Shown here piece by piece: positions 46,697 through 60,130 of a stretch of DNA of 64,000 nt. Every line of letters starts with the position of its first letter. The stretch's first letter is position 1. A model generated the notes under the pieces. That model was not told the origin of the DNA and ran no database searches. It worked only from the letters and a program-made list of their open reading frames with translations. Position numbers and translations under genes: made by a program. The stretch spans positions 1-64,000 of the IMG/VR virus record IMGVR_UViG_3300026097_000015. One strand, given 5' to 3'. This DNA is from a virus.

Positions 46697-46702
46697 ATAG
46701 TT

Positions 46703-46793
46703 AGGTCCCCACACGGACTTTAGGATGGAATTAGTTACTCTTTCTATATACGGCCATCGTGCGGTATTTCGTTGTGTGGGGATCTTTCTTTTT
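46703..46793 (+). ncRNA. Candidate small RNA 1, closed by a long-range stem and ending in a terminator
   Basis: The 5' arm 46705-46714 pairs with 46774-46783 (10 bp including one end G.U, core CCCCACAC/GTGTGGGG), enclosing ~59 nt, and the 3' arm is followed by CTTTCTTTTT. A TATAAT lies 7 nt upstream of the predicted first base. No start codon with ribosome site opens a frame of note. The architecture is of a ~90-nt independent RNA. Target and function unknown. It could also be a large terminator for hsp20, but a 59-nt loop is atypical. Confidence 0.55.
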
Positions 46794-53898: not shown

Positions 53899-53927
53899 TT
53901 GACAATGTGTACAAAATAACATATAAT
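53899..53927 (+). promoter_or_regulatory. Perfect consensus promoter giving a leaderless mRNA
   Basis: TTGACA (53899-53904), 17 bp, TATAAT (53922-53927). The ATG of the next gene is 53934, exactly 7 nt after the last T, with no ribosome site. It drives the 54-57 kb string of small genes. Confidence 0.85.
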
Positions 53928-53933
53928 ATTATT

Positions 53934-54077
53934 ATGCATTCAACAGACGATATGGAATCTGCCTATTACGAAGGCGTACAGGCAGAAAGAGAACGTATCC
54001 TAGAGCTAATTGAGCTATGGCTTGGAGACGACGGCCTAGAGTTTGATGACATTCACCCAGAGATATTGAACGGTTAG
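53934..54077 (+). CDS. 47-residue acidic helical protein, leaderless
   Basis: MHSTDDMESAYYEGVQAERE then RILELIELWLGDDG. The Y-x(2)-G-x-Q-A-E-R-E-R-I motif recurs in short genes of this phage (45648, 55830). Start set by the consensus promoter 7 nt upstream. Function unknown. Confidence 0.7.
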   Translation: MHSTDDMESAYYEGVQAERERILELIELWLGDDGLEFDDIHPEILNG

Positions 54078-56489: not shown

Positions 56490-56563
56490 TGGAGATATTG
56501 GCAGTATTGTCTTTAGTTGCCATGCTTTGGATAGCAGTTTGGTTTACAACTAATGACAGATGA
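56489..56563 (+). CDS. 24-residue membrane peptide (tentative)
   Basis: MEILAVLSLVAMLWIAVWFT then a short polar end. One transmembrane helix, translationally coupled on both sides (TAATG, 11-bp overlap). Very short, so tentative. Confidence 0.4.
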   Translation: MEILAVLSLVAMLWIAVWFTTNDR

Positions 56564-57266
56564 TCTTTCAAACGTAGTAGCAGAAGAAGACTTTCAAACT
56601 TGGAGGATTTTTCCTAAGTATCGTAATCTTTTTAATAAGATGGAGATTGCGTTACAACAAGGCTTGAAGGCAGGACCTGCAGCGGTCAACCCTTTGCATG
56701 ATGGCTACTATATTTCAAGACCTATTTATAATTTATACGGGATGGGCATAGGTGCCAAAAGGTTTTGGTACAGTGATGACATGTACAACCAATTACTTAA
56801 CAATGATGTAGTTCCGCCTGGGCACTTCTGGTGTGAGTGGGTTGAAGGAGATCACCTGAGTATAGACTTTCATCGTGACCCCAAGACTAAGATATTCTAC
56901 ACACGCAGTGTCTGGCAGGGTAAGCATTACACAAGCGATAACCTAACACAGTTCTCGTCATGGACTAGATTAGATAGTGATATTCATCCTTACGACATTA
57001 AACTTAAACTACCCTGGAATGATGAAAAGATTACAGCAATAAACTTAGAGTACAAAGGTAAATACGTAATAGAGGCACACCTTAGATTAGGTAATGACCC
57101 TTGGGATGACCTAGAGACTGGAACAGTAGTTACACCAGTATGGGATGATGCAGAAATAGATCCATCCAAAGAGTTTCGGGGTAACCTTCATCAAGACATG
57201 GAAGCTTACAGTGCAAGTGGACACATATCAAATGTAAGAAAAGGATACTACATAGATAGACCTTAA
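56553..57266 (+). CDS. Unknown 237-residue protein
   Basis: Residues ~20-110 (FNKMEIALQQGLKAGPAAVN; DGYYISRPIYNLYGMGIGAK; PPGHFWCEWVEGDHLSIDFH) have the look of a nucleotide-dependent enzyme of an ATP-grasp kind, with Gly-rich turns and acidic pairs, but no definite motif. I recall similar hypothetical proteins from aquatic phages. It precedes tRNA-Met by 8 bp. Confidence 0.6.
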   Translation: MTDDLSNVVAEEDFQTWRIFPKYRNLFNKMEIALQQGLKAGPAAVNPLHDGYYISRPIYNLYGMGIGAKRFWYSDDMYNQLLNNDVVPPGHFWCEWVEGDHLSIDFHRDPKTKIFYTRSVWQGKHYTSDNLTQFSSWTRLDSDIHPYDIKLKLPWNDEKITAINLEYKGKYVIEAHLRLGNDPWDDLETGTVVTPVWDDAEIDPSKEFRGNLHQDMEAYSASGHISNVRKGYYIDRP

Positions 57267-57987: not shown

Positions 57988-58016
57988 TTGACAAACTCTA
58001 ATATCAGATGTATAAT
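57988..58016 (+). promoter_or_regulatory. Perfect consensus promoter for a structured leader
   Basis: TTGACA (57988-57993), 17 bp, TATAAT (58011-58016). Predicted start near 58023. Confidence 0.85.
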
Positions 58017-58022
58017 ATATTC

Positions 58023-58114
58023 AGCATAGGCAATAGCTGAGCTAGAGGCCCTAGGGGAGTTTCGGACGAAGCTCTTCTAGGGTTCTCGTTATTTAGATTT
58101 AGAAACGGTATAAA
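58023..58114 (+). ncRNA. Structured leader or small RNA upstream of the 58115 gene
   Basis: An 11-bp stem (58049-58059 with 58072-58082, two G.U) with a 12-nt loop dominates this ~92-nt transcript start. No U-run follows the stem, so it is more likely a 5' leader than a terminator. The downstream ATG at 58115 has no clear ribosome site, which raises the chance that the structure controls its translation. Confidence 0.5.
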
Positions 58115-58309: not shown

Positions 58310-58313
58310 GGGT

Positions 58314-58490
58314 CTACAACATAAGCATAGACAAATTCATACTCAATTGATGTATAGCAAGAATACCTATAAGAACACCAACTAATCTAAACCAAAAAAG
58401 AAATACGGGATTGGCCCTAATCTTTTCTTCTAGGTTTATATAGGAATATAGAAAACCTAAGATCAAACCTAATAGTGCAAATTCTGTCAT
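58314..58490 (-). CDS. 58-residue two-helix membrane protein
   Basis: Minus-strand ATG at 58490. MTEFALLGLILGFLYSYINL, a short charged loop EEKIRANP, then FLFWFRLVGVLIGILAIHQL: two transmembrane helices. A TGTTACACT extended -10 ends 6 nt before the ATG, so it is leaderless or nearly so. Holin-like in outline, function unknown. Confidence 0.65.
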   Translation of the reverse strand: MTEFALLGLILGFLYSYINLEEKIRANPVFLFWFRLVGVLIGILAIHQLSMNLSMLML

Positions 58491-58495
58491 ATTCT

Positions 58496-58504
58496 AGTGT
58501 AACA
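58496..58504 (-). promoter_or_regulatory. Extended -10 (TGTTACACT) for the two-helix membrane gene
   Basis: Minus strand TG-T-TACACT; last base 58496 is 6 nt from the ATG at 58490. Confidence 0.5.
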
Positions 58505-58636
58505 CACATAAATCTTTTGAAGGCTACGCCTTTATACCAAGATGATTTGTTACCCTCGCAGAATTGATTCTATGGCTTCTGAGAGCTATTTTATAGCCAT
58601 CGTAATGAAATAATATCTTACTGATTATAAAGCTAT

Positions 58637-58662
58637 GTGGAGGGAAGTGGAGTTATGTGGAG
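58637..58662 (+). repeat. Three GTGGAG repeats at 10-bp spacing
   Basis: GTGGAG at 58637, 58647 and 58657, one helical turn apart, followed by GATATATGG. The last copy starts an inverted repeat (58659-58667 with 58710-58718). Looks like a protein-binding array on one DNA face. Confidence 0.6.
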
Positions 58663-59282
58663 ATATATGGATAATGGAACACATAGTTATAAAACCGTAA
58701 TCAAAATTTTATATCTCCATAGCCCCATATCCTATATAATGCTAAAACAGTCTGGGATTTCAAAAGCTTCATCGTAATGTCTTTTTGGGAGATAGTGTTT
58801 ATATATAGGGGGATAATTACCAAGATAGGTAAATTTTATACCCTCAAAAAATATAAATAAATCTAATAAAATAAACAAAAATAAATAAAAATAGATCAAA
58901 ATGTTTTAAAAATAAAGAAAATGTTTTATTCTCTTATAGGGGGTATTAACGTATAATGGTTAACCAATATATGATATACATACCTAGTGTAAGTACTATA
59001 CCTTCCAGCATTTTATACCCTCCTTCGTAATAAATAATAAATTAATTAATAATGCCTACGGCATCTGTTATAAAATTTGGGGTATACCAACAGATAACCC
59101 ATTAAGTGTTAATATACCTATACATATAATACATATACTAGATTAAGATCATATACCCTGGATGTTACATACATGTTAAATAGTTTTATTATAGATATAC
59201 TAAAACAACCAGCGATTTCAAAAGGTCCATCGTAATACTTTTTAAACTAAATAGTTTTTAATATAGGTCATGCTCGATGCAT

Positions 59283-59358
59283 AAAAAAAAGAAGCTGGAT
59301 AGCTAGTTCATAGCCACATCGCAATGACGTTAGCTAGCTTGCACCTATCCAACTTCTA
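59283..59358 (-). ncRNA. Candidate small RNA 2, closed by a terminal stem with U-tract
   Basis: Minus strand: 59357-59345 pairs with 59302-59290 (13 bp, one G.U), with an inner GCTAG/CTAGC extension, then eight T at 59290-59283. A perfect consensus promoter places the transcript start at ~59358, the first base of the stem. Length ~75 nt. The apical part contains ATTGCGATG, a variant of the surrounding repeat. No reading frame of note. Target unknown. Confidence 0.65.
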
Positions 59359-59364
59359 TACATA

Positions 59365-59393
59365 ATTATATCCTATATAGCCCAGGATGTCAA
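59365..59393 (-). promoter_or_regulatory. Perfect consensus promoter of candidate small RNA 2
   Basis: Minus strand TTGACA (59393-59388), 17 bp, TATAAT (59370-59365). An ATTACGATG repeat box lies just upstream of the -35 at 59408-59400. Confidence 0.85.
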
Positions 59394-59486
59394 GTTGATC
59401 ATCGTAATACCCTCAAAACAACCCACGATTTTATATGATCCATCGTAAAGGTTTTTATATATGGGATATGGTAACATTTTGATAAC

Positions 59487-59504
59487 TTTGGGTCGATCAC
59501 AGAA
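59487..59504. repeat. TTTGGG(G)TCGATC repeat, copy 1
   Basis: TTTGGGTCGATCACAGAA next to a minus-strand terminator hairpin. A near-identical copy lies at 62990-63007, also beside a minus-strand terminator. Confidence 0.6.
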
Positions 59505-59527
59505 TACCCCCTTTTGTCAAGGGGGTA
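59505..59527 (-). terminator. Hairpin terminator at the end of the minus operon
   Basis: Perfect 9-bp stem TACCCCCTT/AAGGGGGTA with 5-nt loop, 9 bp after the last minus-strand gene. The tail on the minus strand is only TTCTG, so termination may be partial. Confidence 0.6.
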
Positions 59528-59536
59528 TAAACTTTA

Positions 59537-59845
59537 CTAGTCTGTGTCAGTGATATCTAGATACTTGTTGTGAAGATTGAGAATACCTGATAACTCGTTA
59601 TCTGTTAGAGAGTCTAATGTCATTTTCTCTAGGGCAATAAAAAAGCATAGGCTAGTGTATAGGTTGTTCTCATAGAGAAATGTCCTATACACATCTGGCG
59701 TATAAACAACTTCCTCGTCACCCCAAAACTGTTCTTCAAGGTCAAGTGTAAATCTGTTTAGAGTGTCTGCTATATCGTATAACTCGGACATTTCTTCTTC
59801 GGTGTATTTTGTCATATCTAAAACCCTATCATATCCTATGGACAT
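59537..59845 (-). CDS. Unknown acidic helical protein
   Basis: 102 residues; ATG directly follows the previous stop. A later in-frame ATG (59815, MTKYTEEEM) is possible. Acidic and helical (ELYDIADTLNRFTLDLEEQF). Last gene of the leftward operon. Family not recognised. Confidence 0.65.
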   Translation of the reverse strand: MSIGYDRVLDMTKYTEEEMSELYDIADTLNRFTLDLEEQFWGDEEVVYTPDVYRTFLYENNLYTSLCFFIALEKMTLDSLTDNELSGILNLHNKYLDITDTD

Positions 59846-60130
59846 TTATTCCATACTCCTAGCTAGTAGGTCATCAAGCACATCATACCCTTCATCCTCT
59901 AGACCTAATGCAGCCAACAGCAGGTCAAAGGTTTCATCAATAAAGGTATTTGCTTCTTTGTTTCCTGAAACAATCTTTTCACTTAGTAAATATGCAAGGG
60001 GTAGCCCTAAGTCATTGTATTCAATAAAGTCTGAAAAATCAGCGTCTGCCCGATAATTCATCCATAGGTCTGCTAGGATGCCGCACTTGTCATTGAAAGT
60101 CGTCTGTCCTGTATTGTCTGAACCGCTCAT
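59846..60130 (-). CDS. Conserved-looking acidic phage protein
   Basis: 94 residues. FNDKCGILADLWMNYRADAD, FIEYNDLGLPLAYLLSE and FIDETFDLLLAALGL match a small acidic protein I associate with many aquatic and actinobacterial phages, of unknown function. The start at 60130 overlaps the upstream gene by 41 bp and lacks a clear ribosome site, so a shorter form is possible. Confidence 0.7.
   Translation of the reverse strand: MSGSDNTGQTTFNDKCGILADLWMNYRADADFSDFIEYNDLGLPLAYLLSEKIVSGNKEANTFIDETFDLLLAALGLEDEGYDVLDDLLARSME

What the first reader, a model, noticed from the sequence alone, without database searches (positions are those of the whole stretch)
59283..59393. Candidate small RNA 2 with perfect promoter and terminator inside the non-coding block
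On the minus strand a perfect TTGACA-17-TATAAT promoter puts the transcript start on the first base of a 13-bp closing stem whose other arm runs into eight U. The plan is the same as in small RNA 1, 12.5 kb away. The loop carries ATTGCGATG, a variant of the repeat box that also sits just upstream of its own -35.
Basis: partly seen in the sequence, partly recalled or inferred. Interest (0 to 1): 0.72.

Follow-up and report, generated by a model that had tools for sequence, protein, structure and literature searches.

The report
Phage hairpin RNA inside origin-like repeats
A bacterial virus seems to carry a tiny gene, with a perfect start signal and a strong stop signal, that makes one ~75-letter hairpin RNA inside a repeat array that looks like its DNA replication control region; related viruses share the array and its start signals but not this RNA.

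Summary
On the minus strand, TTGACA-17-TATAAT (59393-59365) lies 7 nt before a 13-bp closing stem (59357-59290) that runs into eight T (59290-59283). The RNA folds at -30.3 kcal/mol (z -4.2). The full combination appeared in none of 3000 shuffled blocks. No reading frame crosses it and no Rfam family matches.

The context is new. Strand-oriented ~35-bp repeats (ATTACGA core) fill the block and recur in the same place in about 70 uncultivated relatives, usually with a conserved ATCAGTAAG element and often DnaA boxes, so it looks like a replication-control region. Strong promoters pointing the same way are common in these blocks. The hairpin, however, was found only in this phage. Its -35 falls in the right half of a repeat, and its core holds a degenerate repeat copy.

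Best reading: a lineage-specific, self-terminated transcription unit working like lambda pO/oop, where transcription at the repeats may matter more than the RNA. That functional step is inferred. A trans-acting sRNA or a plain roadblock terminator remain possible. In contrast, 'small RNA 1' proved to be a deeply conserved, covarying RNA family.

The parts
59365..59393 (-). promoter of RNA2, TTGACA-17-TATAAT, 12/12
59283..59357 (-). RNA2, predicted ~75-nt transcript: 13-bp closing stem (59357-59345 with 59302-59290), inner hairpin, U8 tail
59283..59302 (-). 3' arm and U-run, intrinsic-terminator end
59301..59327 (-). degenerate copy of the array repeat inside RNA2 (TCATTGCGATGTGGCTATGAACTAG)
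   Evidence: local alignment to the 58606 unit scores 27, reached by 4 of 1000 shuffles
59372..59408 (-). array repeat whose right half supplies the -35 of RNA2
   Evidence: compare L118 ATTACGATGCATGCTTTGAAATCCTGG
59413..59449 (-). array repeat (TTTACGATGG...)
59200..59236 (-). array repeat
58995..59031 (-). array repeat, overlapping the ribosome-binding site of a 21-aa ORF
58742..58778 (-). array repeat
58576..58606 (-). array repeat
58617..58625 (-). conserved ATCAGTAAG element at the far end of the array
58310..59536 (.). whole repeat-bearing, mostly non-coding, origin-like block

Best explanation
RNA2 is a compact transcription unit: polymerase starts at 59357 from a perfect sigma-70-type promoter and stops after ~75 nt at its own 13-bp/U8 terminator. 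It sits inside a conserved array of oriented repeats that is most likely the phage's replication-control region. It probably works like lambda pO/oop: because the -35 is built into a repeat unit, the repeat-binding protein and RNA polymerase compete there, so firing of this promoter feeds back on occupancy of the array, while the built-in terminator keeps polymerase from running on through the rest of the array and the ATCAGTAAG element. The RNA itself may be a by-product or a minor partner. Shown here: promoter, hairpin and U-run, their rarity, the array and its conservation, the overlap of the -35 with a repeat. Inferred: that it is transcribed, that the array is an origin, that a protein binds the repeats, and the regulatory effect.
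For: Promoter-hairpin-U8 combination in 0 of 3000 shuffled blocks; fold z -4.2. Array of ATTACGA units strongly strand-biased (367 against 3) in syntenic blocks of relatives, with (A/T)CAGTAA(G/C)AT in 58 of 70 blocks and DnaA boxes in many. Same-strand promoters are over-represented in these blocks: perfect 12/12 in 19 of 56 non-redundant blocks against 5 on the other strand. The -35 of RNA2 coincides with TTGAAA of the repeat and the RNA core aligns with another repeat. In lambda, the pO promoter beside the origin iterons affects replication while oop RNA seems dispensable for it (PMC3985674).
Against: No expression data. Origin function is untested; cumulative GC skew peaks near the block rather than having its minimum there, which by the usual rule would not mark an origin, though coding direction also changes there. 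Perfect DnaA boxes were not found in the window's own block. The hairpin is unique to this phage, so it cannot be essential to the array.
Confidence: 0.4

Rival explanations
1. RNA2 is a trans-acting or antisense regulatory sRNA. Its apical AUUGCGAUG could pair (one G-U) with CAUCGUAAU copies in rightward transcripts that run into the block from the 57988 promoter, or with other phage or host mRNAs.
For: Stand-alone gene anatomy; the box complement occurs several times on the opposite strand; phage-encoded sRNAs are a known kind (PMC12197685).
Against: No conservation; duplex scan against phage ORF leaders gives no target above shuffles (best energy matched or beaten by 3 of 60 shuffles, and that best hit is a spurious ORF); the pairing box is largely closed in the predicted inner hairpin.
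Confidence: 0.27
2. The hairpin is mainly a roadblock terminator that stops leftward read-through from the 60-64 kb genes before it enters the array; the promoter upstream is secondary.
For: 13-bp stem plus U8 would stop any leftward transcript; relatives L124, L163 and L113 have other U-tailed hairpins in the same direction in their blocks without a good promoter at the stem.
Against: A 42-nt span inside the closing stem is unusual for a terminator; a perfect promoter placing the start on the stem is not explained; another hairpin lies earlier, at 59524-59507 just after the operon.
Confidence: 0.2
3. Chance or a remnant of a small inverted-repeat insertion with no function.
For: Absent from all relatives at the same place.
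Against: Shuffle controls; single copy in the genome; no clear target-site duplication adjoining the stem; repeat-derived core and -35.
Confidence: 0.08
4. A leaderless mini-ORF, as at many promoters of this phage group.
For: Leaderless small ORFs start 6-7 nt after the -10 in relatives' blocks.
Against: Frames across RNA2 are broken and no ATG lies at the predicted 5' end.
Confidence: 0.03

Closest known systems
Lambda pO promoter and oop RNA (PMC3985674, PMC12197685)
   Same: Short, self-terminated transcript of similar size (about 77 nt, from own knowledge) from a promoter beside phage origin repeats.
   Different: oop is antisense to cII and opposes pR; RNA2 overlaps no gene, and its array is not inside a replication gene. 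No sequence relation was sought or claimed.
Small RNA 1 of the same phage (46704-46793)
   Same: Promoter, closing stem at the 5' end, U-rich end, stand-alone.
   Different: RNA1 is conserved in at least 20 relatives with an invariant core and covarying stem; RNA2 is unique and does not match the RNA1 model.
Iteron-type plasmid and phage origins
   Same: Oriented short repeats, AT-rich stretch and, in many relatives, DnaA boxes.
   Different: No initiator protein identified; function untested; a transcribed copy of the repeat inside an RNA is not a standard part.
Stoperator-type sites of mycobacteriophage L5 (own knowledge)
   Same: Asymmetric sites used in one orientation relative to transcription; some boxes lie inside promoter spacers in relatives.
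   Different: Here clustered mainly in one intergenic block rather than scattered, and no repressor identified.

Membership tests
Stand-alone bacterial/phage small-RNA gene | own promoter and intrinsic terminator bounding a short transcript | tested here: met
Stand-alone bacterial/phage small-RNA gene | no coding frame | tested here: met
   frames broken
Stand-alone bacterial/phage small-RNA gene | transcript detected | not testable with these tools
   no RNA-seq available
Stand-alone bacterial/phage small-RNA gene | structure conserved with compensatory changes | tested here: inconclusive
Any Rfam family | covariance-model match | tested here: not met
RNA1 family | core CTTAGGATGGATTAGTTACC inside the closing stem | tested here: not met
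   the RNA1 model hits only 46701-46788 (and its reverse strand) in the window
Lambda oop RNA | antisense to a regulatory gene transcript | tested here: not met
   no ORF of 60 aa or more on the opposite strand at 59283-59357
Lambda pO-like promoter | promoter at origin repeats whose activity alters replication | not testable with these tools
   position at repeats shown; effect needs experiment
Iteron-type replication origin | oriented repeats, AT-rich stretch, initiator/DnaA boxes | tested here: inconclusive
   repeats and AT-rich stretch present; DnaA boxes in many relatives but no perfect one in the window block

The most novel reading that the evidence does not exclude
The phage has turned one unit of its replication-control repeat array into a gene for an RNA that carries a copy of the repeat, so that the RNA, by pairing with the array strand or by titrating the repeat-binding protein, feeds back on replication initiation: an RNA-borne iteron decoy.
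Probability: 0.08. Interest if true: 0.75.

Novelty: new member of a known kind. Interest (0 to 1): 0.36.

Why it matters
If transcribed, it is a very clean small-RNA gene in an uncultivated phage group, nested in a conserved repeat array that may be the replication origin of a large uncultivated lineage of tailed phages related to Streptomyces phages. It would allow a test of whether transcription at phage origins is tuned by short self-terminated units, as argued for lambda pO. The array itself and the RNA1 family are the more general prizes.

Tried and rejected
BLASTN of the block against named phages: no match. Neighbour protein 59537-59845 as bait: no relatives, nor 56553-57266; the 94-aa protein 59846-60130 worked but has no match in named phages. 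Stem pattern GAAGTTGGATAG..CTATCCAGCTTC: none in IMG/VR. Repeat-embedded promoter pattern: one unrelated hit in a GC-rich contig. Promoter + AGAAGnTnGATAG pattern: three copies of one region without the hairpin. Target scan of RNA2 against phage ORF leaders: nothing above noise. tRNA-like or Rfam identity rejected. Coding rejected. Relationship to RNA1 rejected by model. Drawing relatives by taxonomy is not possible for a virus record.

Full report
What is there. On the minus strand, bases 59393-59365 are TTGACA, 17 nt, TATAAT. Seven bases later (59357) begins AGAAGTTGGATAG, which pairs with CTATCCAGCTTCT ending at 59290, followed by the rest of a run of eight T ending at 59283. The 75-nt RNA folds at -30.3 kcal/mol, z -4.2. 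The combination is absent from 3000 dinucleotide shuffles of the block and 40 of the genome. The frames across it contain stops.

Where it is. The record is a 101,544-base IMG/VR virus. Its terminase is 53% identical to that of Streptomyces phages such as Samisti12 and EGole and up to ~80% identical to many IMG/VR contigs. The block 58310-59536 contains the largest gap between ORFs in the genome and lies between convergent gene sets.

The block in relatives. With the conserved 94-aa protein next to the block (59846-60130) I fetched 80 contigs. Their downstream blocks carry ATTACGA on one strand 367 times against 3 on the other. The unit is roughly ATTACGAwss, six variable bases, AAAAATCCCAGAAAGTT; about 35 bp. 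Seventy blocks have at least three boxes, and 58 of those the (A/T)CAGTAA(G/C)AT element; in many, 2-4 DnaA boxes (TGTGGATAA) follow it. This is an origin-like architecture; origin function is an inference. The window has seven units (59449, 59408, 59325, 59236, 59031, 58778, 58606), counting the degenerate one inside RNA2, and ATCAGTAAG at 58625.

RNA2 against the array. The -35 TTGACA coincides with TTGAAA in the right half of the unit: ATTACGATGATCAACTTGACATCCTGG in the window against ATTACGATGCATGCTTTGAAATCCTGG in L118. The RNA core TCATTGCGATGTGGCTATGAACTAG aligns with the 58606 unit TCATTACGA--TGGCTATAAAATAG at a score reached by 4 of 1000 shuffles. So both the promoter and the RNA core look built from repeat units.

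Conservation. RNA2 has no relative: BLAST, block alignment, an IMG/VR stem pattern and a single-sequence covariance model over 878 kb find only itself, its own reverse strand and ordinary terminators. In contrast, promoters on the same strand are common in the blocks: 12/12 promoters in 19 of 56 non-redundant blocks on that strand and 5 on the other, with none in mononucleotide shuffles. Of 35 distinct such promoters (at least 11/12), only the window's is followed by a strong hairpin (-30.3; next -18.1 kcal/mol). L124 and L163 have a U-tailed 18-19-bp hairpin elsewhere in the block without a good promoter.

Mechanism. The most economical reading is a pO/oop-like unit: promoter firing at the array, limited to ~75 nt by its own terminator, coupled to occupancy of the repeats. 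In lambda, loss of pO impairs replication through changed transcription and possibly weaker binding of O to the iterons, while oop RNA itself seems dispensable for replication (PMC3985674). Shown here: anatomy, rarity, array conservation and overlap. Inferred: transcription, protein binding, and effect. The main rivals are a trans-acting or antisense sRNA and a roadblock terminator.

Comparison with RNA1. RNA1 (46704-46793) is a true conserved family: at least 20 relatives upstream of the same gene, an invariant core, a closing stem with compensatory changes in 9 of 12 pairs, and model hits to loci not used in building it such as L014 and L095; it matches nothing in Rfam at gathering score. 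RNA2 shares the plan, not the family.

Limits. Metagenome contigs could not be scanned. The promoter consensus is that of sigma-70; the host is unknown, perhaps an actinobacterium judging by kinship of the phage.

Noticed in passing
46704-46793 (+); L187, L190-L192, L195-L199, L201, L202, L206, L207, L209-L211, L218, L220, L227, L232; L014:19747-19840; L095:16995-16905(-): Small RNA 1 is a conserved structured RNA upstream of the phrog_2859 gene: TATAAT, covarying closing stem (9 of 12 pairs with compensatory changes), invariant core CTTAGGATGGATTAGTTACC, U-rich end. Not in Rfam.
   Followed up: partly
58310-59536; downstream of the A1 gene in L103-L182: Conserved, strictly strand-oriented ATTACGA repeat array with ATCAGTAAG element and, in many relatives, DnaA boxes: a candidate replication origin of a large uncultivated phage lineage.
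   Followed up: partly
58946-59011 (-); L085 and L093 blocks: Tiny ORF with a good ribosome-binding site, MLEGIVLTLGMYIIYWLTIIR; similarly placed short hydrophobic peptides can be read in L085 and L093.
   Followed up: partly
57988-58084 (+): Another perfect TTGACA-17-TATAAT promoter, followed by a 17-bp hairpin (58047-58084) ahead of the 58115 ORF: a further small RNA or a structured leader.
   Followed up: no
L094:7690-8176 (-): Cluster of several promoter/hairpin/U-run units next to a weak tRNA match in relative G008, one of them a 68-nt hairpin with an 11/12 promoter: phages of this group may carry several small RNA genes.
   Followed up: partly
53899-53934 (+); L095, L065, L097, L100: Several promoters place an ATG 6-7 nt after the -10, implying leaderless mRNAs.
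   Followed up: no
blocks of L113, L122, L123, L128, L167 and others such as L124, L163, L146, L153, L088, L095: A small leaderless-type ORF (MSPR... or similar) sits between early repeats of the array, a slot comparable to that of RNA2.
   Followed up: partly
L093:4357-4681 (-): Relative G008 encodes a tmRNA (Rfam RF00023).
   Followed up: no
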